This document shows, one piece after another, positions 38,027-50,192 of a stretch of DNA of 64,000 bases. Numbering within the stretch: the stretch's first letter is position 1; each line of letters begins with the position of its first letter. The DNA is from an uncultured Flavobacteriaceae bacterium (GTDB lineage: Bacteria; Bacteroidota; Bacteroidia; Flavobacteriales; Flavobacteriaceae). The notes under the pieces were generated by a model. That model had not been told where the DNA came from. It searched no databases and saw only the letters and a program-made list of their open reading frames with translations. The DNA is taken from the NCBI GenBank assembly GCA_947501845.1, contig CANMXP010000001.1, forward strand, positions 62,001 to 126,000. Direction: 5' to 3'. The position numbers and the translations under genes were made by a program.

Positions 38027-39718
38027 ATGAGTGACGATAAAAAAGTAATTTTCTCAATGTCTGGTTTAACCAAGACATTTCAAGGTGCCAATACACCCGT
38101 ATTAAAAAACATTTATTTAAGTTTCTTTTATGGAGCCAAAATAGGAATTTTAGGCCTTAATGGTTCGGGTAAATCCACATTACTTAAAATTATAGCAGGA
38201 GTTGATAAAAGCTATCAAGGTGATGTCACGTTTTTACAAGATTACTCCGTTGGTTTTTTAGAGCAAGAACCAAAACTGGACGATAATAAAACAGTGATTG
38301 AAGTCGTGCGCGAAGGTGCAGCTGAAACCGTTGCCATTCTTGATGAATATAATAAGATTAACGATATGTTTGGTTTGGAAGAAGTATATTCCGATCCTGA
38401 CAAAATGGAAAAGTTAATGAACCGTCAGGCAGAACTTCAAGACCAGATTGATGCTGCCAATGCATGGGAACTCGATACCAAACTAGAAATAGCCATGGAT
38501 GCACTGCGTACTCCAGATGGTGATAAGAAAATTAGCGTGCTTTCTGGTGGAGAAAAACGTCGTGTAGCATTATGTCGTTTGCTTTTGCAAGAACCAGATG
38601 TATTATTATTAGATGAGCCTACCAACCACTTAGATGCAGAATCGGTACATTGGTTAGAGCATCATTTAGCGCAATATAAAGGTACCGTGATAGCGGTAAC
38701 GCACGATAGGTACTTTTTAGATAATGTAGCAGGTTGGATCTTAGAACTGGATAGAGGTGAAGGTATTCCATGGAAAGGCAATTATTCCTCTTGGTTAGAT
38801 CAGAAATCAAAACGCTTGGCACAGGAAAGTAAAACGGCTTCTAAACGTCAGAAAACCTTAGAACGTGAGTTAGAATGGGTAAGACAAGGAGCTAAAGGAC
38901 GTCAAACGAAGCAAAAGGCGCGTTTAAAGAATTACGATAAGTTAATGAGTCAAGATCAAAAACAACTTGATGAAAAACTAGAAATATACATTCCAAATGG
39001 ACCGCGATTAGGAACTAATGTTATAGAAGCTATAGGTGTTAGTAAAGGTTACGATGATAAATTGTTGTACGATAATTTAAACTTTAACCTGCCACAAGCT
39101 GGTATTGTTGGAGTAATTGGTCCAAATGGAGCAGGTAAAACCACTATTTTCAGAATGATTATGGGTGAAGAGACTCCCGATAAAGGCGAGTTTAAAGTGG
39201 GGGATACTGCCCAAATAGCGTATGTAGACCAAAGCCATTCAAATATTGACCCAGAAAAATCGATTTGGCAAAATTTTAGTGATGAGCAGGAGTTGGTCAT
39301 GATGGGAGGTAAGCAAGTTAATTCACGTGCCTATTTAAGTCGTTTCAATTTCTCTGGAAGTGAACAAAATAAAAAAGTAAAGCTGCTTTCTGGAGGAGAA
39401 AGAAACCGTTTGCATTTGGCAATGACTCTTAAAGAAGAAGGCAATGTGTTGCTTTTGGATGAGCCCACTAATGATCTTGATGTAAATACATTACGAGCCC
39501 TAGAAGAAGGTTTAGAAAACTTTGCTGGGTGTGCAGTGGTTATATCGCATGATAGGTGGTTTTTAGATAGAATATGCACGCACATTCTTGCTTTTGAAGG
39601 AGATTCTCAAGTTTATTTCTTTGAAGGTAGTTTTAGTGATTACGAAGAAAACAAAAAGAAACGTCTTGGTGGTGATTTAATGCCCAAACGCATAAAGTAT
39701 AAAAAACTAGTAAGATAA
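38027..39718 (+). CDS. ettA: Energy-dependent translational throttle protein EttA (ABC-F)
   Basis: A 563-residue ABC-F ATPase that binds the ribosomal E site and gates the first peptide bond according to the ATP/ADP ratio in E. coli. Two ABC cassettes are complete: Walker A GLNGSGKST (about 45-53) with LSGGEKRRVAL and LLLDEPTNHLDAES, then GPNGAGKTT (about 364-372) with LSGGERNRLHLAM and LLLDEPTNDLD. The EttA arm lies between about 95 and 140 (TVIEVVREGAAETVAILDEY), and the inter-domain P-site-type linker is rich in Lys/Arg (VRQGAKGRQTKQKARL). Length matches the 550-560 residues of the family. A terminator follows. Confidence 0.96.
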   Translation: MSDDKKVIFSMSGLTKTFQGANTPVLKNIYLSFFYGAKIGILGLNGSGKSTLLKIIAGVDKSYQGDVTFLQDYSVGFLEQEPKLDDNKTVIEVVREGAAETVAILDEYNKINDMFGLEEVYSDPDKMEKLMNRQAELQDQIDAANAWELDTKLEIAMDALRTPDGDKKISVLSGGEKRRVALCRLLLQEPDVLLLDEPTNHLDAESVHWLEHHLAQYKGTVIAVTHDRYFLDNVAGWILELDRGEGIPWKGNYSSWLDQKSKRLAQESKTASKRQKTLERELEWVRQGAKGRQTKQKARLKNYDKLMSQDQKQLDEKLEIYIPNGPRLGTNVIEAIGVSKGYDDKLLYDNLNFNLPQAGIVGVIGPNGAGKTTIFRMIMGEETPDKGEFKVGDTAQIAYVDQSHSNIDPEKSIWQNFSDEQELVMMGGKQVNSRAYLSRFNFSGSEQNKKVKLLSGGERNRLHLAMTLKEEGNVLLLDEPTNDLDVNTLRALEEGLENFAGCAVVISHDRWFLDRICTHILAFEGDSQVYFFEGSFSDYEENKKKRLGGDLMPKRIKYKKLVR

Positions 39719-40416: not shown

Positions 40417-41766
40417 ATGTCAGACGATTTTGATTTATTGGAAACCAATTCTAACGAGAAAACAGAGAAAGTAGATGTCAATTGGGGAAAAGCCATAGAC
40501 ACTATGAAATCTAAATTATCTCAAGAGGATGATCCAGAAGTTCGGCAAAAAATATTAAATGCCACCTTAGATGATGTGGTATACATGGCAGAAAAAGATA
40601 GGACAACGCTCTTAGATGCCATAAAAGACCTTACAGATTATCAAGATGAAGTAGGTATTATTTTTGAGAAATTCTCTTCGCTTAATGCTACCGAACAAAA
40701 GGTCATTGACGATGCCCAAAAAGCTTTAGAACGTGCTAAAATAGAATTAGAAGATGCTGAGGCAAAGCCAGATACCTGGTGGAATAACCTTTGGGGACGT
40801 AAAAGCAAAATAAAAAAGGCTCAAGACGAGCTTAAAGCTGCTGAAAAAATACGTGCTGCTGCGGATAATAAAGCAAAAGCCATGTTTCAAGAGCGTATTG
40901 AAAGTGCCGATGTACAAACCCTATTAAGTGAATTGTCCTATAAATCTCAGGCAGCAGTAGGCAGATTGAAAAATCGTGAAGTAGAGATTAAAGAAGTAGA
41001 AGACAAATTACAAGATGCCATTGTAGAAGCTACTAAAAACCATACAAAAGCTTTAGAAAAGAAGAAAGAGGTAGAAGCCAAATTAGAAGAGCGCTATGCC
41101 TTATTAAAGCAAGCACGTCAAGAGCTTGAAGATATTGCAGATAAGCAATCTGCAGATTATGCACAAGCCGTAGGTAAGGTTACAGAGCTAGAACAAAAAG
41201 TAGAAGAATTAGAAGGGCTTAAAAATGCTTACACAACACTTGCTGCCAGTAAAGATAGTTTTGTACATAAACATAACTTAACTATAAAAGTATTGACCTC
41301 TTTAAGAAGTAATTTACAAACGCATCGTGCTAAGTTAAAGAGTGATACCGAAGAACGTTTAAAATATTATGATGGCTATGTAGTCGCATTAAAAGCAAGA
41401 ACCGATCAAGAGTTTGCTGCTATTTTAGAACATTTAGGTGTAAAAACAGATGAGCACATTGGGGAAACCCTAGCATCTATGCATACAGCAAGTGCTAAAG
41501 CACGTCAAGATATGATGGACAATATCCCTGTTCACGAAAAAGTTATGCAAGGTGTTTATAGTAGTTATGCAGAGGCTTTACAGGAAATTCGTGCTAAAGA
41601 TAGCGATATTCAAAAGAATTTTGCTGAGCGCTATGGCATCGATATGAAAGAGATTTTTGAAGATTACTATAAAGTCGATCCAAATAAAGCTTCAGATGGT
41701 GATGACGGAGAGCCAGAAAGCAACCCTAAACCAGAAGCCAGCGATGATGATGATTTGTTGAGCTAA
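40417..41766 (+). CDS. Long coiled-coil protein, first gene of the AAA+ cluster
   Basis: A 449-residue soluble protein, mainly heptad-like coiled coil from about 75 to 330 (KALERAKIELEDAEAK, KAQDELKAAEKIRAAADNKAKA, LEKKKEVEAKLEERYALLKQARQELEDI, VTELEQKVEELEGLKNAY). A tryptophan-rich break, PDTWWNNLWGRKSK (about 117-130), interrupts it. The C-terminus is an acidic, disordered tail (DGDDGEPESNPKPEASDDDDLLS). There is no signal peptide or membrane helix. A further in-frame ATG at 40354 would add 21 residues encoded by the AT-rich leader; MSDDFDLLE is preferred. I do not know a function. As a partner of the AAA+ ATPase two genes on, it could be its substrate or scaffold. Confidence 0.8.
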   Translation: MSDDFDLLETNSNEKTEKVDVNWGKAIDTMKSKLSQEDDPEVRQKILNATLDDVVYMAEKDRTTLLDAIKDLTDYQDEVGIIFEKFSSLNATEQKVIDDAQKALERAKIELEDAEAKPDTWWNNLWGRKSKIKKAQDELKAAEKIRAAADNKAKAMFQERIESADVQTLLSELSYKSQAAVGRLKNREVEIKEVEDKLQDAIVEATKNHTKALEKKKEVEAKLEERYALLKQARQELEDIADKQSADYAQAVGKVTELEQKVEELEGLKNAYTTLAASKDSFVHKHNLTIKVLTSLRSNLQTHRAKLKSDTEERLKYYDGYVVALKARTDQEFAAILEHLGVKTDEHIGETLASMHTASAKARQDMMDNIPVHEKVMQGVYSSYAEALQEIRAKDSDIQKNFAERYGIDMKEIFEDYYKVDPNKASDGDDGEPESNPKPEASDDDDLLS

Positions 41767-41829
41767 TTTTTCCTGCAAAGGAAGGAATCTCATCAAAATA
41801 ACTATAAATATTTAAATAATCTGGGCGTT

Positions 41830-41873
41830 ACTTTTACGCATAACTATAAAATTTTATAATTATGCGTAAAAGT
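41830..41873. repeat. 44-base near-perfect palindrome
   Basis: Left arm ACTTTTACGCATAA... and right arm ...TTATGCGTAAAAGT are complementary at all but one of 22 positions, centred on AAAATTTT. Flanking text (GGGCGTTA before, CAGGCTTTTGGCAGTCGCTT after) resembles a flavobacterial interspersed element that I recall. A second small inverted run (GCTTTTTTTG...CAAAAAAGAGC) follows near 41890-41915. Confidence 0.75.
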
Positions 41874-42007
41874 CAGGCTTTTGGCAGTCGCTTTTTTTGA
41901 AAAAACAAAAAAGAGCTTCAACAATGCCTCAATCCTTAACGCACTATTCAACTAACTTAATTGTTACACGAGTAAGAACTTTTAATAGTTCACTTTTAAT
42001 AAAAAAA

Positions 42008-43069
42008 ATGTCCATAAATCATATTGTAACGCCATTAGATTCGGCAGTCTTAGACTCCAAAGAACATTACGTTTTCTATCATAAGATGGTTGATTTTGCT
42101 TTTAAAGAGCTTATAGTTGCTGTACAACAACAAAAGATTTGCAGCGGCCAAGAAGTACTTCTGTTTAAGCAATATTGCGATTTGTTGTTATATTCTATAG
42201 AAGCCATGCGCATTAAATATATGTATGACGATGAGGATAATATGAAAGTCGATTTAACCTATTCTGGATTTCCAAACTATCTAGAATTTAGGTATTTGTT
42301 TAATGATTTAGAATTGCGTGACGATTATTTAGGTAGGCTTACACCAGTAGAAACTCTAAAAGAAGAGTTTTTAGATACGCTCATGCGTAAAAAAGAATCC
42401 ATTAAAAAAAGTAAACTGTTTCAGGCTGCATCCATAGTATATTATTCATCTGTTAAGAAGCAATACATCTTTAATCGTTTTGTACAAGGCAAAATATTAA
42501 GTGCTCCCGAAGAAATAGACACTAAATATATGACGAGTTGGAGCTTTTTTGATGTCACTCACAACCGTCCATTTATCTGCTTTATGTATTTCAATTATAT
42601 TGGAACAGACATACAGGATTATAAAGATGACATTTACGAAGTTTTAAAAACGACGGCCGATAGAAATATGTCTTTAGATACGATGGCCTATACAATTGAT
42701 AGAAAATTACCAAAAGTATCACCTAAACTAATAAAACGCATTGATTTAGGTCCTATGCATAATGTCTTTGCAAAAGACGAAAATGATATCACGCATACAA
42801 TTTTAGAAGGTATAGGGAAAAAGGAAATTCCTTTAGAATCATATGCCATTTCATTAAGAATAGATGAAGTAGAATCTGGAAGCGAATTTAAAGAAGGCGG
42901 TTTTTTTAGTAAACAAATCCTTCAAAAATGGAATGATGTATTTAAACAGAAATATGTATTTGCCCCACATCGTATCATTCAACTATTGTACAATAAAACA
43001 CCAGAACTTATGAACGATTTAGCAAAACCACCAGTTGAAATGAGTAGTTTGAAATATTCAAAAAAGTGA
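42008..43069 (+). CDS. Unknown 353-residue protein of the AAA+ cluster
   Basis: Not recognised. Soluble, mixed alpha/beta, without signal peptide or membrane helix. Notable stretches: LDSKEHYVFYHKMVDFAFKE near the start, WSFFDVTHNRPFICFMYFNYIG near the middle and GFFSKQILQKWNDVFKQKYV near the end. The frame is open 111 bases further upstream to a TTG at 41897, but that part lies in the repeat-rich spacer and looks non-coding; ATG at 42008 gives MSINHIVTPLDS. It follows the coiled-coil gene by 241 bases and precedes the AAA+ gene by 179. Confidence 0.72.
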   Translation: MSINHIVTPLDSAVLDSKEHYVFYHKMVDFAFKELIVAVQQQKICSGQEVLLFKQYCDLLLYSIEAMRIKYMYDDEDNMKVDLTYSGFPNYLEFRYLFNDLELRDDYLGRLTPVETLKEEFLDTLMRKKESIKKSKLFQAASIVYYSSVKKQYIFNRFVQGKILSAPEEIDTKYMTSWSFFDVTHNRPFICFMYFNYIGTDIQDYKDDIYEVLKTTADRNMSLDTMAYTIDRKLPKVSPKLIKRIDLGPMHNVFAKDENDITHTILEGIGKKEIPLESYAISLRIDEVESGSEFKEGGFFSKQILQKWNDVFKQKYVFAPHRIIQLLYNKTPELMNDLAKPPVEMSSLKYSKK

Positions 43070-43248
43070 TCGGTTGTACGATACAGTCACGGTCTACGAT
43101 GAGTAATTTTAAAAAACACACAATAAGTTTAATTATAAGTAAATATTAAGGTAAAAATAAAATATATAACAGTCGAAGTATACACAGCAAGAGTAATCAC
43201 TGCAAATTGCCACAAAACACTGTTCTCTAAATTACTGAATACTAAAAA

Positions 43249-45210
43249 ATGGAACATAACTCAACATTCCCAATAAAACTAACCGAACTCGATATGCTTC
43301 GCGATGAAGCGTCTTCCTACTTAAAAAGTATACAATGGGAGCAGGGGCAACGAGCAAAGAATAGAGATAAAGATGCTAAGGACGAGTCCATTTTGTTGTA
43401 CCTGTCTCGAGCAAATAATGGCAGTAATACGGTAGAAGCAACTTCGGTATCGAAAACTATTTTAGCCTTAAAAAAGCGGTTACTCCCAGATTCTATAGCG
43501 ATTCCTATTTATTTAAATCAAACGCTCTATGCTGTTCAGGAAGGTCTTACTTTAGGCATTTGGATTAAAGACAGTTATTACGATTCATCAGGGTTGTCGA
43601 GTTTAAATGAAAACAAATCAGCTTTAGATACTAACGGTAAACGTGAATTTGAAAGTAAAATGCATACAGCTACGGCTTTTATGCTTTTTAGTACAGCTTA
43701 TAAAGTATTAAACGATTTAAAACCTTATGCATCAGATGATTTGAGTGTTATGAAGCAGAAGTTTGCTGGTATTCCCGAAGTGTCTTTAATGACGCCCTTA
43801 AAAGGTATATCGTGTAGCTTATTTTATTACGATAAATACTTGGGGCATCCAGAAATTATAAAGTCTGATAAAGATGTTATTGATTTTACAGTGGTTTATT
43901 TTGAAGCCTTAATCGATGAAATTCAGTTACGTAAAAGCAGTTTAGAATATACCGAAACCATAGAGGACAGAACCTATAAATTAGAAAAATCTGAATTTGC
44001 TGTTTCAGGTTGGAGCAATGTATTTCAAGGTACAGCAAAAAGTGTTGAGTTCAATAAAATTAAGTTTGAGCAAATTGTGGGTAACCGGGATGCCAAACAT
44101 TTTTCGCGTCGTCTAACCGAGCGTATGTTGAGTTACGATTTTACAGCTAAAAAAAATCCGTTTCAAGAACTAGGAGGTTTCATGCCTGTTTTTATGGGTT
44201 ATGGTATTCCAGGAACAGGAAAGAGTATGCTTATTGCAGCCATAGCCACACGGCTTAAGGAGCATTGCGATGCATTAGATATTCCGTTTTTATTTCACCC
44301 AATGCCAGACACACTTATAAGTACATTTCAAGGAGGATCGGCAGAAAAGATGGTAGAGTGGATGAAACCCATGCAAGATCCTTCAAAATTAATTTTTGCG
44401 CCTATAGATGATGCAGAAAATAATTTACAGGAACGAACTGCACAGGGTGTTTCGGCAGGTGTAAAAGAAGTCATTGGTGTGTTTTTGCGTTATACAGAAG
44501 GTGCTTATGCCGTAAACTATGGAAATAGCTCAATAGGGCTCTTTACCAATTTACCCGAAATGTTGGACAAGGCAGTCATCTCGCGTGTACAAGGACGATT
44601 CAAAATAGATGGGGCCAGAACAGCGCATGATTTTTTAGATCAAGATCATTTATGGTGGCGTAAACTGGATGAAACGATGCCAGATTTTGTAAATATGCAA
44701 GGACCTGAAAACTATACCTATTTACAAGATCAAGGACTGGCAAAAAATATGGGAGAGATTCTTAATGTAACGAACAAGCCAACCGAAGAGCGTGTACATG
44801 AGATTTATGATAACGTAGAGAAACAATTTAAAACGAACGAGCATTTATTCTATGCCAATCTTTATAAGAATATGCAAAAAGCATTTCCGTTCTTTTCATC
44901 ACGTGATGTTAGGAATATTCAAAGTGCGGTGTCATTGCGTCTAACGGATTTTGATTTGGAAGATGATTGGTTCGATAATCCAGAAATCTATTTTAAACAA
45001 GATTATGAAACCAAGTTTAACATGCTTCAAGAATTGATGCGTGCCAATATGAAAGGTTTGGATTTTTCTGAAATTCGTCGTCAAGAAGTAGTACGCTATA
45101 TAGATAATGTGGCAACCATAGCAGATACCGATTTTAAACGAAAAGTAGATGCTAGAGTCAACCAATTGAATATTGAGACTGAAGCCAGAAAAACATTTGA
45201 AAATGAGTGA
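43249..45210 (+). CDS. AAA+ ATPase of the uncharacterised cluster
   Basis: A 653-residue cytoplasmic protein. About 300 N-terminal residues of unknown fold precede one classical AAA module: Walker A MGYGIPGTGKSML (about 319-331), Walker B LIFAPIDDAE (about 382-391, Asp-Asp instead of Asp-Glu), sensor-like GLFTNLPEML, and an arginine-finger-like ISRVQGRFKID (about 444-454). The C-terminal helical part ends in DNVATIADTDFKRKVDARVNQL. The pore-loop region (DTLISTFQGGSAEKMVEWM) suggests substrate threading or remodelling. I cannot place it in a named AAA subfamily. Its stop overlaps the Nudix start by eight bases. It probably works on the coiled-coil protein or the cluster's membrane proteins; this is inference from context. 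Confidence 0.82.
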   Translation: MEHNSTFPIKLTELDMLRDEASSYLKSIQWEQGQRAKNRDKDAKDESILLYLSRANNGSNTVEATSVSKTILALKKRLLPDSIAIPIYLNQTLYAVQEGLTLGIWIKDSYYDSSGLSSLNENKSALDTNGKREFESKMHTATAFMLFSTAYKVLNDLKPYASDDLSVMKQKFAGIPEVSLMTPLKGISCSLFYYDKYLGHPEIIKSDKDVIDFTVVYFEALIDEIQLRKSSLEYTETIEDRTYKLEKSEFAVSGWSNVFQGTAKSVEFNKIKFEQIVGNRDAKHFSRRLTERMLSYDFTAKKNPFQELGGFMPVFMGYGIPGTGKSMLIAAIATRLKEHCDALDIPFLFHPMPDTLISTFQGGSAEKMVEWMKPMQDPSKLIFAPIDDAENNLQERTAQGVSAGVKEVIGVFLRYTEGAYAVNYGNSSIGLFTNLPEMLDKAVISRVQGRFKIDGARTAHDFLDQDHLWWRKLDETMPDFVNMQGPENYTYLQDQGLAKNMGEILNVTNKPTEERVHEIYDNVEKQFKTNEHLFYANLYKNMQKAFPFFSSRDVRNIQSAVSLRLTDFDLEDDWFDNPEIYFKQDYETKFNMLQELMRANMKGLDFSEIRRQEVVRYIDNVATIADTDFKRKVDARVNQLNIETEARKTFENE

Positions 45211-45784
45211 TGAGCAAGTTAAAAATATTGAGCACACCTTACTTTCAGATAACTACTATACCTTGAATAAAGTCACTTTTGATTATTTAATGAAAAGTGG
45301 TAAATGGGTAAATCAAATGAGAGAGGTGTATGATAGAGGTGATGGTGCTGGAATATTGTTATATAACAAACAAAAAAAGACAGTTATTTTAACCAAACAA
45401 TTTAGAATGCCCACTTATTTAAACGATAATAAGGATGGCTTTTTAGTTGAAATTACTGCTGGAATGTTAGACAAAGACAATCCTGAAACATGTGTTATTA
45501 GAGAAACAGAAGAGGAGGTTGGTTATAGGTTAAAAGAAGTTAAAAAAGTATATGAGGCCTACTCGTCGCCTGGGGTGATGACCGAAAAAATGCACTTTTT
45601 TATTGGTGAGTACACAGATGATATGAAAGTTAATGATGGCGGCGGGTTGGATAGCGAACATGAAGACATAGAAGTATTAGAAATACCTTTTACAGAAGCG
45701 GTTAGCATGTTAAATAATGGGGGAATTTATGATACAAGAACGATTGTTTTATTACAATATGCACAGATTCATAAGTTGTTATAG
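45203..45784 (+). CDS. Nudix hydrolase, NudK-like
   Basis: A 193-residue Nudix pyrophosphohydrolase. The Nudix box is GMLDKDNPETCVIRETEEEVG (residues about 92-112; the REtEEEVG catalytic helix intact), preceded by VILTKQFRMPTYL and followed by YSSPGVMTEKMHFFIGEY. Overall text resembles GDP-mannose pyrophosphatase NudK. A longer start with TTG at 45173 exists; ATG at 45203 overlaps the AAA+ stop (ATGAGTGA) and is preferred. Being coupled to the AAA+ gene, it may hydrolyse a nucleotide related to that system, or simply be a housekeeping passenger. Confidence 0.9.
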   Translation: MSDEQVKNIEHTLLSDNYYTLNKVTFDYLMKSGKWVNQMREVYDRGDGAGILLYNKQKKTVILTKQFRMPTYLNDNKDGFLVEITAGMLDKDNPETCVIRETEEEVGYRLKEVKKVYEAYSSPGVMTEKMHFFIGEYTDDMKVNDGGGLDSEHEDIEVLEIPFTEAVSMLNNGGIYDTRTIVLLQYAQIHKLL

Positions 45785-45797
45785 AAAAATTAAAAAC

Positions 45798-46232
45798 ATG
45801 TTTGAAGAATTTGAAGCAGAAAATAGAATTGAAATTGCACAAAAACGTTACAGGGTTTTAGCGTTTATAATTGACTTTTTTGTTTTTTGGTTGATAGGTA
45901 TGGTATTAGGAATATTTTTTGGAACTCCAAATGAAGAAGGATTTGGGTTTAATTTAAATGGACTGCCAGCACTTATAATGTTTTTATTTGGCTTTTTTTT
46001 ATGGCCAATAAGCGAGGGAACATTTGGGCAAACTATAGGTAAGAGGCTGACAAAAATAAAAGTGGTTTCTGATTCTAGTGAATCTGCTAGCATTGGACAA
46101 GCCTTTATAAGATTCTTTTTCGGGTTTATAGATTACATTTTTTTAATAGGTCTGATAATAGCCTCTACTGATAAAAATAATAGACGCATAGGAGATATGG
46201 TTGCTAAAACATTAGTTGTTAAACAAAAGTAA
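45798..46232 (+). CDS. RDD family membrane protein
   Basis: A 144-residue integral membrane protein with three to four helices and the RDD pattern: Arg in KRYRVLAFIIDFFVFWLIGM (about 16-35, the R...D pair), ISEGTFGQTIGKRLTKIKVVS (about 75-95) and FIRFFFGFIDYIF near the end, then DKNNRRIGDMVAKTLVV. RDD proteins are small, mostly uncharacterised; some affect ion homeostasis. A longer frame starts at 45717 inside the Nudix gene but MFEEFEAENR is the natural start, 13 bases after that gene's stop. The next gene begins directly at its stop. Confidence 0.9.
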   Translation: MFEEFEAENRIEIAQKRYRVLAFIIDFFVFWLIGMVLGIFFGTPNEEGFGFNLNGLPALIMFLFGFFLWPISEGTFGQTIGKRLTKIKVVSDSSESASIGQAFIRFFFGFIDYIFLIGLIIASTDKNNRRIGDMVAKTLVVKQK

Positions 46233-47468
46233 ATGCAAAAATTAATAGAAGCCAATTTATATAGAAGTGAACTTATCCCCGTAAGCGGAAAACTGGTGGA
46301 GCGTTATAATGAATGTTTAATAAAACTTGGGTTTACAAAAACAAAGTTAAAAACGTTTCATATAGATGGTATTGGATGGAGCCCAGAAGTAGCAGAAGAA
46401 AAGGAAAATCTTCATTACTTAAATAATGGAGAAGCGAATCCGCATGGTATCATTATTTCACCATTGCAAAAAGGCAAGCCTGTATATTTGCCATATCATA
46501 CTTTTGATAGGGACATGATGCAGCAAATATTTAAAATCTATGGAAATAAAATCAATGATATTACCAGAGATTCAGCTATTTGTATTGATTTTGATCAAAA
46601 GATAGATGTTTTTTATGAACCTTTAGATGTTTTGAAATATAATACAGTACACATTAATTTTCATTTAATGAATAATCTGTATCACCTGCAAAATGAGCAA
46701 CTCCAACTTATTGAAAAGTTTAAAGAGGGACATAACTTTATAGATGAAGAAATTCATTTAGAGTTATTGAATTCTGCTAAAACATACGGTGACTTAAGAA
46801 CTAGGGATTTAGAATTACCAGCTATAGATTTCTCAGTAAGTACCTTTTATACCAGAGCTTTTGGTGGTGTTTATGTATTGCGTGATTTTATTACACCCAT
46901 TCTTGTTTTTGAGAACGAGAAATGGTATAAAGAAGCTATTAAAGATACAAATTATGAAGTGTTAATTTATCATATTCACCAACCTGAGTTGATGGATAAA
47001 TTACGCGATCATGTTATTATAGAATACGATTTAGAAGCAGCAGTGCAAACAGAGCGTTACGAACGTATTAAAAAGTTTGAAATGACGCAATACCTAAAAG
47101 AAACGCAACACCCAGTTAAAGATATTTTAAACGATCCTATTTTATATAAAAGCTATCTGAATAAATTAGATATTGAATCACGTAAAAAGGTTATGAGTGT
47201 AGAGCGTTATTTAGAAAAACTAGAAACCAGTAATCAGTATAAAATAGCAGATATTGTAGATTTAAAGTTATTTGAAGCCCTACACAAACCACATTCTTCG
47301 TTAGAAGGAAAACACCAAGATTTAATTTGGAAACTGCTGGTAAATGTATCACCTAAAGATGTACTGTATTGGTATTGGTACGACAAGGAGGACTTTTATG
47401 ACAGTTTTAAGTTCTGGGATGAGTCACTAAAAGAATGGGCTATAGAAACGATTAGTAACAAAATTTAA
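46233..47468 (+). CDS. Unknown 411-residue protein of the AAA+ cluster
   Basis: Not recognised; I suspect it belongs to a flavobacterial DUF family. Soluble, without signal peptide. Distinct text: GLGFTKTKLKTFHIDGIGWSPEVA-like opening (LGFTKTKLKTFHIDGIGWS), ANPHGIIISPLQKGKPVYLP, IDFSVSTFYTRAFGGVYVL, and a Trp/Tyr-rich end (DVLYWYWYDKEDFYDSFKFW). The ATG follows the RDD stop with no gap (TAAATG), so they are translationally coupled. The sequence shows no nucleotide-binding or catalytic motif that I know. Confidence 0.78.
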   Translation: MQKLIEANLYRSELIPVSGKLVERYNECLIKLGFTKTKLKTFHIDGIGWSPEVAEEKENLHYLNNGEANPHGIIISPLQKGKPVYLPYHTFDRDMMQQIFKIYGNKINDITRDSAICIDFDQKIDVFYEPLDVLKYNTVHINFHLMNNLYHLQNEQLQLIEKFKEGHNFIDEEIHLELLNSAKTYGDLRTRDLELPAIDFSVSTFYTRAFGGVYVLRDFITPILVFENEKWYKEAIKDTNYEVLIYHIHQPELMDKLRDHVIIEYDLEAAVQTERYERIKKFEMTQYLKETQHPVKDILNDPILYKSYLNKLDIESRKKVMSVERYLEKLETSNQYKIADIVDLKLFEALHKPHSSLEGKHQDLIWKLLVNVSPKDVLYWYWYDKEDFYDSFKFWDESLKEWAIETISNKI

Positions 47469-47497
47469 TATTTATAGACTAATAAATTAGAAACGTT

Positions 47498-47519
47498 TGT
47501 CATACTGAACTTGATTCAG
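47498..47519. repeat. Partial dispersed repeat (TGTCATACTGAAC type)
   Basis: TGTCATACTGAACTTGATTC and the following bases carry the repeat end TGTCAT plus a CTGAA...TTCAG inverted pair, like the element ends at 24.9, 36.7-36.8 and 48.1 kb. Only one end is present, so this is a remnant. Confidence 0.5.
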
Positions 47520-47593
47520 ACTAGCAAAAATAACCATAAGCATAAGTAAGGAACTCCAAGCTCCCAACTTAGTGCTTTAAATTATATAACAAC

Positions 47594-48109
47594 ATGGGAC
47601 TAGAATTAATAATTTTTATTGCAGCCATATTTTTCGGAGCTTTTCTGTATTGGAGAGAATCTCGAGGCAATGGCTTATACCGTTTTTTTAATAAGATTTT
47701 TAATTCGAAAGAATTACAGATGAAACCTAATGATAAAAAAGGTTTTGTATACCAACAAACATTTTTAGTTCGGCTTATTTTTATTGGATTTCTATTTTTA
47801 ATAGGTATTGTAGTTGCCCGTTTCTTAATTCCAATAGATATTACAACTATTTCAATATTTGCATCTATGATTGTCGGCACGTTGGCTGGAACTTATTTAG
47901 CAAATTTTATATTTAAGTCGGGAGAGGTCATCGAAGAAAAATCAGATTCCTTAGAAGATATTGTACATGACACCATTGAAAAAGGGAAAGATTTTATTGA
48001 GGATTTAAAAACTAAAGACGTTGAAGAAGAGATAGAGGAGATAGAAGAAAAACCAAAAAGTGAAGAGAAAAGTGCTAGAGAACGTTTAAAAGATAAGGGG
48101 TTGTTGTAA
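47594..48109 (+). CDS. Membrane protein with acidic coiled tail, AAA+ cluster
   Basis: A 171-residue protein. One helix at the start (LELIIFIAAIFFGAFLYW), two more at about 55-105 (FLVRLIFIGFLFLIGIVVARFL and ISIFASMIVGTLAGTYLANFI), then a charged cytoplasmic tail (VEEEIEEIEEKPKSEEKSAR) predicted to be helical or disordered. No family recognised. It sits between the 411-residue gene and the 569-residue membrane protein on the same strand; a palindromic repeat follows its stop immediately. Confidence 0.75.
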   Translation: MGLELIIFIAAIFFGAFLYWRESRGNGLYRFFNKIFNSKELQMKPNDKKGFVYQQTFLVRLIFIGFLFLIGIVVARFLIPIDITTISIFASMIVGTLAGTYLANFIFKSGEVIEEKSDSLEDIVHDTIEKGKDFIEDLKTKDVEEEIEEIEEKPKSEEKSARERLKDKGLL

Positions 48110-48110
48110 T

Positions 48111-48192
48111 TGTCATTCCTGCGGAGGCAGGAATCCACTTTAGAAGAAAGCATTGTAATATAACTAAGATTCCCGCCTTCGCGGGAATGACA
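48111..48192. repeat. Double-hairpin dispersed repeat inside the AAA+ cluster
   Basis: Begins TGTCATTCCTGCGGAGGCAG and ends CGCGGGAATGACA. Each end is itself a hairpin (TTCCTGC...GCAGGAA and TTCCCGC...GCGGGAA) and the two ends are inverted relative to each other. The GC-rich arms stand out from the AT-rich surroundings. It begins one base after the stop of the preceding gene, and the next gene starts 10 bases after it. Confidence 0.8.
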
Positions 48193-48202
48193 AAAAATAA
48201 AT

Positions 48203-49912
48203 ATGATTAAAAATTACTGGAATAAAGGAAAACGCCAAAAAATAACAACCATAGTAGTTGCCTTAATATTACTTATCACATTGTTTGTTTTACGCGACGA
48301 TTATCAACCTGCACTATTATTTGTTAGGAAATTTATTTTCATCATTTTATTAAGTGCAATTGTTTTATTTTTTGGTCTAAGAAAATTTAGAAGCTCTGCA
48401 AGTACAGGAAGACGTTTAGGTATTTTGGGACTATTGGTTGTTTTCTTCGGAATTTTATATGTACTAGGCTGGCATTTTAAAATGTACGATTATATGAAAA
48501 CGTATAATGTTTTCAATAGTCTGAATCGAGTTGAAATTAATGAATTGCCTTTAACTCAAAATGAAAGAATTCAACCATTAAGAAATGTATTTTCTATGGC
48601 GAACGAAAGTGTTGGAGAGACTAAAGATGTTTCATTGCCACATCTGGTTAGAGTAGGAGAAGAGAACAAATGGACCATGGCTATTCAGCCTACAGAAAAG
48701 TATGTTTGGCAGGGTATGACTGATAACACCGAAGAGGTTTTTGCAGTATCAAGTACGACACCTTTTCCAAGGTTTTCTAACGAAAATAGAATTCCTGTAA
48801 CCTTTTCAATAGGGGAGTCTTTAAAGTTTAGTAGAAATACTTACAATGCCGTAGTACAACGTTTTAATCTTTTTCAGTTATTCACGATGGAACCCAGTGA
48901 TACCTACTACATGAAAAATGATACAGGACAATGGGTAGAAGTGGTAAGTTTAATTAAGTGGAAAGGCTTTTTGTTTCCTTACCCGACTTTTGGGGGAGTC
49001 ATGGTGATCGAGAACGGTGAACATGATTTTAACGATTATCTAGAGCGTATTTTAATAGGAAAAGGAACTTATGTAAAGCCTGAGGAGATGAAAAATCATC
49101 CATACCTCACAAGACAAAATACATTAGCCGAAAAAGTATCACGTTTACAAGCTGAATCTTTAAAGTTTTTAGGAGGGTTTAGTGATCCATTACCATGGAA
49201 TATGGAAACAGCTGTAAAGATTCCAGATTTGCCAGACGATCAAAATCAACAACCATTTGTAACCGATTTTGATTTTTCAGACACTGATTCTGATGCTTAT
49301 AGTGGTTTATACCATTGGTTTGGGTTAGAACCCGTAGGGGATGAGCGTACCAGTTTAACCTTTAGTGTTTTTATACCAGCAGATGGTAGTGATAAAGTTT
49401 ATTATTACGATCATGCTTCAAAAAAGCAAGGCTACGCAGGGGTTTCTGCCATGCCTTTAAAAGTTATTGAATCTCGTAAAGAATTTGATTGGTCGGTTAA
49501 TAAACCTGTCGAGTTTAGGCCTTATATAAAAGACATAGCGGGCAGAAAACGTATGTTCTTTTTAGGCACTATATCTGCTATAAGAGAGGGATCCGATAAT
49601 TTTGATGGTTCTGCTACGCCAGATTTAGCGTTAATAGATAGTGAATACAGAGATGTGGTTTGGATAGATGTAAAACACCCCAGTCAATGGGACAAAACAG
49701 TCTATGACCAATTAAACGAAGCCTGGAGAGCAAGTGAAGGTATTGGTTACTATTTTGTTGAAGGCAGAAAAGAGATTGATTTATCTGAAGCAGTAAAAGA
49801 CGCTTTAAAGACGATTCCAAGCGATACATTAAAACAGGTTGAGGGCACTAAAAAGGCTGAAGAAATTGAAAGACTTCAAAAGCAAATTGATTCGTTGAAG
49901 GCCATTAATTAA
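48203..49912 (+). CDS. Unknown 569-residue membrane protein of the AAA+ cluster
   Basis: Three N-terminal helices (about 14-33 TTIVVALILLITLFVL, 38-58 FVRKFIFIILLSAIVLFFGL, 71-90 LGILGLLVVFFGILYVLGW) are followed by about 475 soluble residues, likely outside the cytoplasm. That part looks mostly beta (WTMAIQPTEKYVWQG, TSLTFSVFIPADGSDKVYYY) and ends in a coiled coil (KKAEEIERLQKQIDSLKAIN). No family recognised and no catalytic motif seen. The 90-residue gene follows after seven bases. It is a candidate membrane platform for the cluster's AAA+ ATPase; this is inferred only from linkage. Confidence 0.75.
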   Translation: MIKNYWNKGKRQKITTIVVALILLITLFVLRDDYQPALLFVRKFIFIILLSAIVLFFGLRKFRSSASTGRRLGILGLLVVFFGILYVLGWHFKMYDYMKTYNVFNSLNRVEINELPLTQNERIQPLRNVFSMANESVGETKDVSLPHLVRVGEENKWTMAIQPTEKYVWQGMTDNTEEVFAVSSTTPFPRFSNENRIPVTFSIGESLKFSRNTYNAVVQRFNLFQLFTMEPSDTYYMKNDTGQWVEVVSLIKWKGFLFPYPTFGGVMVIENGEHDFNDYLERILIGKGTYVKPEEMKNHPYLTRQNTLAEKVSRLQAESLKFLGGFSDPLPWNMETAVKIPDLPDDQNQQPFVTDFDFSDTDSDAYSGLYHWFGLEPVGDERTSLTFSVFIPADGSDKVYYYDHASKKQGYAGVSAMPLKVIESRKEFDWSVNKPVEFRPYIKDIAGRKRMFFLGTISAIREGSDNFDGSATPDLALIDSEYRDVVWIDVKHPSQWDKTVYDQLNEAWRASEGIGYYFVEGRKEIDLSEAVKDALKTIPSDTLKQVEGTKKAEEIERLQKQIDSLKAIN

Positions 49913-49919
49913 AACGAGT

Positions 49920-50192
49920 ATGTTAGCAGGCCAACAACTTTTTAAAGAGATTGCAAAAAGACGCAAAGCACGAAAAGATAAAACCAATGGTAAGTTTGAT
50001 AAAAAGAAGCTAAACTATAAAACATCAGAAGATAAGCCCGAATTTAAATTTCCAAAACTTAGACCATCTGAACTTGAAAGGCTAAAGACAGGAATAAGAA
50101 GTAATACTAAAAGAGATAGGTTAAAGGATTATGCATTGTTTTTTATTATTTTTTTGATACTATTTGCTTCGTTTTACTATTTCATGAATTGA
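49920..50192 (+). CDS. Small basic protein with C-terminal membrane anchor
   Basis: A 90-residue protein: a Lys/Arg-rich N-terminal part (KEIAKRRKARKDKTNGKFDKK), a short PKLRPSELERLKTGIR segment and a C-terminal helix (YALFFIIFLILFASFYYFM), i.e. tail-anchored with the basic part in the cytoplasm. It starts seven bases after the 569-residue gene and ends the same-strand run. Function unknown. Confidence 0.72.
   Translation: MLAGQQLFKEIAKRRKARKDKTNGKFDKKKLNYKTSEDKPEFKFPKLRPSELERLKTGIRSNTKRDRLKDYALFFIIFLILFASFYYFMN

What the first reader, a model, noticed from the sequence alone, without database searches (positions are those of the whole stretch)
40417..50192. Nine-gene same-strand cluster centred on an unclassified AAA+ ATPase
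Coiled-coil protein, unknown 353-residue protein, AAA+ ATPase, Nudix, RDD, unknown 411-residue protein, two membrane proteins with large soluble parts and a tail-anchored small protein lie on one strand. AAA+/Nudix overlap by eight bases and RDD/411-residue genes touch, so the core is translationally coupled. The AAA+ module has an Asp-Asp Walker B and a pore-like region, and its 300-residue N-domain is unfamiliar. This composition resembles membrane-remodelling or protein-complex-assembly machines, but no named system fits. It is the best candidate here for an undescribed system.
Basis: partly seen in the sequence, partly recalled or inferred. Interest (0 to 1): 0.8.

Follow-up and report, generated by a model that had tools for sequence, protein, structure and literature searches.

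The report
Uncharacterised six-gene AAA+ membrane machine
Six of the nine flagged genes form a tightly kept, apparently unstudied bacterial module, built around an ATP-driven motor and a coiled-coil protein, that is inherited nearly all-or-nothing in a family of mostly marine bacteria and has a four-gene version in distant Proteobacteria, so it is probably a real cellular machine whose job is still unknown.

Summary
In detail: nine same-strand genes at 40417-50192, with the 8-base AAA+/Nudix overlap and touching RDD/411-aa genes. It is really a six-gene system plus passengers. In 31 flavobacterial loci the order CC, U353, AAA+, DUF6638, TM171, TM569 never changes; Nudix (26/31), RDD (3/31) and the 90-aa gene (6/31) come and go. 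So the cited coupling joins passengers to the core.

Profile searches of 199 Flavobacteriaceae genomes: four tested components all present in 61, all absent in 135, partial in 3. Two genomes split the cluster yet keep all six genes. CC-U353-AAA-DUF6638 recurs in order in rhizobia and Vibrio megaplasmids. The ATPase is classic-type AAA with a conserved Asp-Asp Walker B. CC, U353 and DUF6638 match no characterised family; CC showed no detectable relation to PspA or TelA. Two structure models were too weak for fold comparison.

Best reading, not shown: an AAA+ motor remodels a coiled-coil assembly at the inner membrane, coupled to a periplasmic domain of TM569. System reality is near certain; mechanism about 0.35. 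No paper on it was found in the held library.

The parts
40417..41766 (+). CC: 449-aa coiled-coil protein, acidic, no predicted TM; ends in a variable linker plus conserved [DE][DE]LL[SGN]
   Evidence: ORF; 62 of 199 family genomes, same set as AAA+; blastp against 6 S. meliloti and 5 Vibrio proteins 9e-8 and 2e-8, hhalign 97.3%, but tblastn at E 0.01 missed it; tail in 30 of 30 sequences, window included
42008..43069 (+). U353: soluble protein of unknown fold
   Evidence: blastp S. meliloti 4e-15, Vibrio 2e-13 against 6 and 5 proteins; no Pfam/NCBIfam match at E <= 1, best PDB profile match 0.049
43249..45210 (+). AAA+: 653-aa classic-type AAA ATPase with ~260-aa N-terminal and ~200-aa C-terminal regions of its own
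   Evidence: PF00004 9e-9; S. meliloti 2e-56, Vibrio 5e-64 against 6 and 5 proteins; Walker A core, IDD Walker B, Asn434, Arg446, Arg450 invariant in 11 rows
45203..45784 (+). Nudix hydrolase, NudK-like: passenger, not core
   Evidence: present in 26 of 31 loci, absent in the three compact loci
45717..46232 (+). RDD membrane protein: passenger, not core
   Evidence: PF06271; 3 of 31 loci at E 1e-3, 2 with over 40% coverage
46233..47468 (+). DUF6638 protein (411 aa), no predicted TM, function unknown
   Evidence: PF20343 4e-28; 61 of 199 family genomes
47594..48109 (+). TM171: three predicted TM segments, acidic variable tail, conserved terminal [SN]AR[EQD]RLK[DN]KG
   Evidence: hydropathy; 31 of 31 loci; tail in 32 of 32 sequences, window included
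48203..49912 (+). TM569: three predicted TM segments then a ~470-aa domain, periplasmic by the positive-inside rule (inferred)
   Evidence: 31 of 31 loci; 63 of 199 family genomes
49920..50192 (+). S90: small basic protein with a C-terminal TM; optional
   Evidence: 6 of 31 loci at E 1e-3

Best explanation
A dedicated two-part cellular machine. The cytosolic part is CC, U353, the AAA+ ATPase and DUF6638; the membrane part in Flavobacteriaceae is TM171 plus TM569. Shown: the parts are one evolutionary unit, and the ATPase keeps most residues of an active classic-type AAA ring (the Walker B Glu is Asp). Inferred: the AAA+ hexamer grips CC through its conserved tail by the aromatic-Gln-Gly pore loop and remodels or disassembles a coiled-coil assembly at the inner membrane; U353 and DUF6638 are adaptors or scaffold; TM171 docks the machine through its conserved terminal peptide; TM569 links it to the periplasm. 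The likely role is upkeep or stress repair of the envelope.
For: Invariant order in 30 of 30 flavobacterial loci that reach CC; the 31st, L051, is truncated. Family co-occurrence: all four tested 61, none 135, partial 3 of 199. Genes kept after the cluster was split: G404 into three pieces, G438 into CC-U353-AAA-DUF6638 and TM171-TM569. Same four-gene order in rhizobia and Vibrio; AAA, U353 and DUF6638 found in the same 10 of 72,556 plasmid-collection records, CC in those 10 plus one. dN/dS 0.016-0.098 in 34 of 35 gene comparisons, one not computable. Pore loop [FY]QG, sensor Asn and paired Arg conserved in 11 rows. Conserved termini after variable linkers on CC and TM171. A membrane protein (DUF2333, two predicted TM) follows DUF6638 in 3 of 4 rhizobial loci.
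Against: No member has a tested function. CC shows no detectable homology to PspA or TelA. The CC model is low-to-medium confidence; its fold matches all have E above 0.001 and are a mix of coiled coils, chemoreceptor, alpha-pore-forming-toxin and F-BAR chains. The DUF6638 model is unusable. No match to TM171, TM569 or DUF2333 was found around the Vibrio cores or the R. leguminosarum TP16 core, and TM569 does not match DUF2333, so the membrane link is not universal. The CC tail motif differs in Proteobacteria. Two genomes keep TM569 without the core.
Confidence: 0.35

Rival explanations
1. An AAA+ assembly chaperone or unfoldase: the ATPase matures a specific envelope complex, with CC, U353 and DUF6638 as adaptors rather than as a filament.
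For: Classic-type AAA with pore loop; two soluble unknowns and a membrane pair fit adaptor/client roles; the membrane part varies by lineage.
Against: No client gene that recurs with the core across lineages was seen; CC is the most conserved of the six within Flavobacteriaceae (mean column identity 0.93), more like a central component than a client.
Confidence: 0.28
2. A true PspA/ESCRT-III plus Vps4-type system in which CC is a diverged PspA/Snf7 protein.
For: PDB profile hits of the ATPase domain include VCP-like ATPases, Vps4 and katanin; a weak NCBIfam match to cell division protein CdvC, E 0.0028, 16.6 bits against a cut-off of 650; PspA/Snf7 with AAA+ partners exist in bacteria (PMC11237479, passages); the host genome has no PspA_IM30 hit.
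Against: hhalign CC vs PspA 2.9% and 0.3% against 97.3% for flavobacterial vs proteobacterial CC; profiles are thin (Neff 1.1-3.1), so this is not conclusive; G088 has both the system and a PspA.
Confidence: 0.07
3. A toxic-anion or envelope-stress system in which CC is a TelA-like protein.
For: Long helical protein of similar size next to unknown soluble and membrane proteins.
Against: hhalign CC vs TelA 0.7% and 0.2%; no TelA hit in the host genome.
Confidence: 0.04
4. An anti-phage defence system.
For: Patchy presence, 62 of 199 family genomes for the ATPase; weak PADLOC matches of the ATPase to IetA and of the S. meliloti ATPase to TRIP13, both 1e-5.
Against: Non-ATPase proteins match PADLOC at 0.0072 or weaker; an ABC-F gene lies upstream in 26 of 31 loci, a fixed place; no relatives confirmed in viral contigs by pattern scans or in phage records with the Vibrio ATPase.
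Confidence: 0.08
5. Unrelated neighbours that happen to lie on one strand.
For: Gaps in this genome are wide and hold passengers.
Against: All-or-none presence, cross-phylum order, survival after cluster break-up.
Confidence: 0.02

Closest known systems
Vps4/ESCRT-III and bacterial PspA/Snf7-AAA+ associations (PMC11237479, passages seen)
   Same: Classic-type AAA ATPase encoded with a dedicated coiled-coil protein; membrane-linked partners
   Different: CC not detectably homologous to PspA; no counterpart of U353 or DUF6638 in the passages seen; the ATPase has its own large N- and C-terminal regions
Classic AAA proteins (VCP-like ATPase, proteasomal Rpt, katanin, Vps4, FtsH)
   Same: PF00004 core; best PDB profile match a VCP-like ATPase at 8e-10, over the ATPase domain (60 of 217 matches shown)
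   Different: Walker B IDD instead of the usual DE (usual form recalled); no known N-domain and no protease domain matched
TelA (PF05816) toxic-anion family
   Same: Long helical soluble protein
   Different: No profile similarity
DUF2333 (PF10095) membrane protein family
   Same: Membrane protein with a large domain, next to DUF6638 in S. meliloti, Shinella and Sinorhizobium K101
   Different: Not similar to TM569 by hhalign; also found without the system in Skermanella and a rhodobacterial plasmid

Membership tests
Classic AAA ATPases (PF00004) | Significant match to the AAA domain profile | tested here: met
   9.1e-9, 36.3 bits over a 21.2 cut-off
Classic AAA ATPases (PF00004) | Walker A, sensor-1 Asn and paired Arg of the second region of homology (motif names recalled) | tested here: met
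   G319, P321-K325 (PGTGK), N434, R446, R450 invariant in 11 rows: 7 flavobacterial, 3 rhizobial, 1 Vibrio
Classic AAA ATPases (PF00004) | Walker B ending Asp-Glu (recalled) | tested here: not met
   Asp-Asp (D387, D388) in 11 of 11 rows
PspA/ESCRT-III-Vps4 system | Filament protein of the PspA/Snf7 superfamily | tested here: not met
   No such Pfam match at E <= 1; hhalign with PspA 2.9% and 0.3%, thin profiles; Snf7 itself not compared by profile-profile
PspA/ESCRT-III-Vps4 system | AAA+ with N-terminal MIT domain | tested here: inconclusive
   No MIT match in Pfam; N-domain structure not predicted
PspA/ESCRT-III-Vps4 system | ATP-dependent filament remodelling on membranes | not testable with these tools
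   Needs biochemistry
TelA / toxic-anion resistance | TelA-family protein | tested here: not met
   hhalign 0.7% and 0.2%
Known anti-phage defence systems | Components match PADLOC models beyond the shared ATPase domain | tested here: not met
   IetA/TRIP13 at 1e-5 on the ATPases; other proteins 0.0072 or weaker
DUF6638 (PF20343) | Profile match over the curated cut-off | tested here: met
   99 bits over 27

The most novel reading that the evidence does not exclude
A bacterial machine that does what ESCRT-III/Vps4 does, but with a filament protein of separate origin: a classic AAA motor that takes apart a coiled-coil coat at the inner membrane, with its own adaptors (U353, DUF6638) and, in Flavobacteriaceae, a periplasmic link, its core shared between Bacteroidota and Proteobacteria.
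Probability: 0.2. Interest if true: 0.87.

Novelty: categorically new. Interest (0 to 1): 0.63.

Why it matters
Three of the four core families (CC, U353, DUF6638) match no characterised protein by the searches run here, yet the set is kept under strong constraint and nearly all-or-none in 61 of 199 sampled Flavobacteriaceae genomes (198 genera), and its four-gene core is in rhizobia and Vibrio megaplasmids. That is a machine with a defined parts list and a tractable laboratory host (Sinorhizobium meliloti), so its function can be tested directly. The rating refers to the system; its ATPase engine is of a known kind. If CC proves to be an ATP-remodelled coat, it would be a further route to membrane remodelling in bacteria.

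Tried and rejected
TelA idea for CC: six TelA proteins aligned and compared with two CC profiles, 0.7% and 0.2%. PspA idea: 12 PspA proteins, 2.9% and 0.3%. TM569 as DUF2333: 0.2%. Defence: PADLOC on the nine window proteins and the S. meliloti ATPase; PHROGs on seven gave only weak ATPase-domain and marginal matches. Phage or mobile origin: phage records searched with the Vibrio ATPase, no match; viral contigs 43 and 80 pattern matches, none confirmed. Solved structures: ATPase domain in the 60 of 217 matches shown; U353 best 0.049, DUF6638 best 0.24; CC best 8e-4 to a 60-residue stretch of a centrosomal coiled coil, read as generic. Structure prediction: CC pLDDT 63.9, DUF6638 50.9; fold searches gave nothing at E <= 0.001. 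S. meliloti 1021 gene numbers: I guessed that the cluster lies between shmR (SMc02726, seen in passages) and choX (number recalled), and that SMc02733 may be the ATPase or U353; one paper lists a ChvI-bound fragment inside SMc02733 (PMC3687685, passage). The identity is unverified and is not used as evidence; searches for the other numbers found nothing. A promoter scan found 62 promoter-like sites against 49.4 expected (sd 7.0) and 5 terminator-like against 5.4.

Results against the reading, and rows dropped: window CC as a tblastn query at E 0.01 found no match in the rhizobial or Vibrio loci; the link rests on blastp against a handful of proteins, on the profile comparison and on place. E-values are for 5-6 subject proteins. 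In one search one of 31 U353 translations, with a stop inside after automatic extension to the query's start, was left out. L051 lacks CC and U353 because its contig starts inside the ATPase gene. G460 (73% complete) has CC and a partial ATPase (model positions 1-313).
Full report
What was checked. The window is from a Flavivirga-like member of Flavobacteriaceae: the best match to the 411-aa gene is a Flavivirga rizhaonensis contig at 92%, and the genome is G000, 5.37 Mb in 75 contigs. The nine ORFs are as reported. Pfam recognises the AAA+ domain, the Nudix, the RDD protein and DUF6638; CC, U353, TM171, TM569 and S90 reach no curated cut-off in Pfam or NCBIfam.

Six genes, not nine. I collected 31 flavobacterial neighbourhoods: 23 from a scan of genome contigs for the DUF6638 protein and 8 from whole genomes. 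CC, U353 and AAA+ are in 30 of 31 (the other, L051, is a contig that starts inside the ATPase gene); DUF6638, TM171 and TM569 in 31 of 31 (23 of these loci were chosen by DUF6638). The order never changes. Nudix is in 26, RDD in 3 (2 with over 40% coverage), S90 in 6, and an ABC-F gene lies upstream in 26. In L068, L069 and L070, which lack Nudix and RDD, the distances between match ends from U353 to TM569 are 8-46 bases, stop codons included: a compact operon. Elsewhere the gaps hold assorted passengers.

All-or-none presence. To avoid the bias of seeded loci, I searched one set of 199 Flavobacteriaceae genomes (198 genera) with four profiles: AAA+ 62, CC 62 (the same genomes), DUF6638 61, TM569 63. 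All four occur in 61, none in 135. The three partial cases are G460 (CC plus a partial ATPase, 73% complete genome), and G466 and G469 with TM569 but no other tested part. U353 and TM171 were not searched in this set. Across the phylum the system is rare: a full-length ATPase in 3 of 198 genomes, G000 included, DUF6638 in 4 of 296, G000 included. In the genus sample 12 of 12 have the ATPase, counting G000.

Break-up without loss. In G404, a 2.95-Mb single contig, the cluster is in three places: CC-U353-AAA+ behind the ABC-F gene, DUF6638-TM171 about 750 kb away, TM569 about 92 kb further; all six remain. In G438, a draft, the split is CC-U353-AAA+-DUF6638 against TM171-TM569 on another contig with other neighbours. 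Genes kept after losing linkage are likely coupled by function. G466 is the opposite case: only Nudix and TM569 remain beside the ABC-F gene; G469 (87% complete) shows TM171-TM569 only. The splits suggest a cytosolic part and a membrane part.

Cross-phylum core. tblastn in 72,556 plasmid-collection records found DUF6638 relatives in 6 rhizobial records. Four neighbourhoods examined hold CC, U353, AAA+ and DUF6638 in the same order, and three of the four continue with DUF2333. Blastp window against six S. meliloti proteins: AAA+ 2e-56, DUF6638 1e-29, U353 4e-15, CC 9e-8. Vibrio megaplasmids carry the same four in order: against five Vibrio proteins AAA+ 5e-64, U353 2e-13, CC 2e-8, DUF6638 4e-11 over 59 residues. 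Window CC as a tblastn query missed these loci at E 0.01, but the two groups' CC profiles align at 97.3%, and S. meliloti and Vibrio CC match at 3e-71. Searches with the S. meliloti ATPase and the Vibrio DUF6638 and U353 return the same 10 records, and the hit positions give the same order in all 10; Vibrio CC returns those 10 plus one R. leguminosarum plasmid that has only CC and DUF2333. No match to TM171, TM569 or DUF2333 lies around the Vibrio cores or the TP16 core.

The parts. In the ATPase the Walker A core, the IDD Walker B, Asn434, Arg446, Arg450 and the Gln-Gly of the [FY]QG pore loop are invariant in 11 rows from three lineages (motif names recalled). The 60 PDB profile matches shown of 217 lie on the ATPase domain, best a VCP-like ATPase. 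CC is mostly helix in a model of pLDDT 63.9 and within Flavobacteriaceae is the most conserved of the six (mean column identity 0.93). It ends in a variable Pro/Gly/acidic linker and a conserved [DE][DE]LL[SGN] in 30 of 30 sequences; TM171 ends likewise in [SN]AR[EQD]RLK[DN]KG in 32 of 32 (window included). Such endings often are docking peptides (general knowledge). Proteobacterial CC proteins end differently. TM569 has three predicted TM segments and a ~470-residue domain that the positive-inside rule puts in the periplasm (inference). dN/dS against five close relatives is 0.016-0.098 in 34 of 35 comparisons, Nudix included, dS often near or above 1.

What it is not. CC shows no profile similarity to TelA or PspA; the profiles are thin, so distant kinship is not excluded. 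TM569 shows none to DUF2333. PADLOC matches of weight concern the ATPase domain; NCBIfam gives a weak CdvC match to it, E 0.0028. No relative in phage records or viral contigs was confirmed.

Literature. DUF6638 and PF20343 are in none of the held papers; DUF2333 is in one, seen in the listing only. Wider searches brought up the comparative study of PSP systems, which describes PspA/Snf7 with classical AAA+ partners (PMC11237479, passages), and others that I did not open. The library holds open-licence PubMed Central only, so absence there is not proof.

Verdict. A real, conserved and apparently undescribed six-gene system with a four-gene core that crosses phyla. The motor is classic-type AAA; the most likely mechanism is ATP-driven remodelling of a coiled-coil assembly at the inner membrane, confidence about 0.35, with an assembly-chaperone role as the main rival.

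Noticed in passing
window 45203-46232; relatives L035, L036, L038, L044, L050, L052, L053, L065, L071; L061: Gaps between core genes collect insertions: Nudix, RDD, small ORFs resembling four-helix-bundle (S23-like) proteins and a GIY-YIG-like ORF (names by recall), a 726-aa ORF in L035/L038, and DUF559 plus an IS4 element at the AAA/DUF6638 junction in S. meliloti.
   Followed up: partly
window 38027-39718: An ABC-F ATPase gene (name by recall) lies just upstream of the system in 26 of 31 relatives, a fixed chromosomal place; whether it is functionally linked is unknown.
   Followed up: partly
own genome G000: No PspA_IM30 protein was found, whereas 39 of 99 sampled Bacteroidota genomes have a match (37 over the cut-off), and G088 has both PspA and this system.
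   Followed up: partly
L103 (G466) and L104 (G469): TM569, or TM171-TM569, survives without the tested cytosolic core parts, in G466 as a remnant next to the ABC-F gene and Nudix.
   Followed up: partly
window 48169-48188: A GC-rich perfect hairpin lies between TM171 and TM569; it is the only copy in the window within 2 mismatches, and the rest of the genome was not searched for it.
   Followed up: partly
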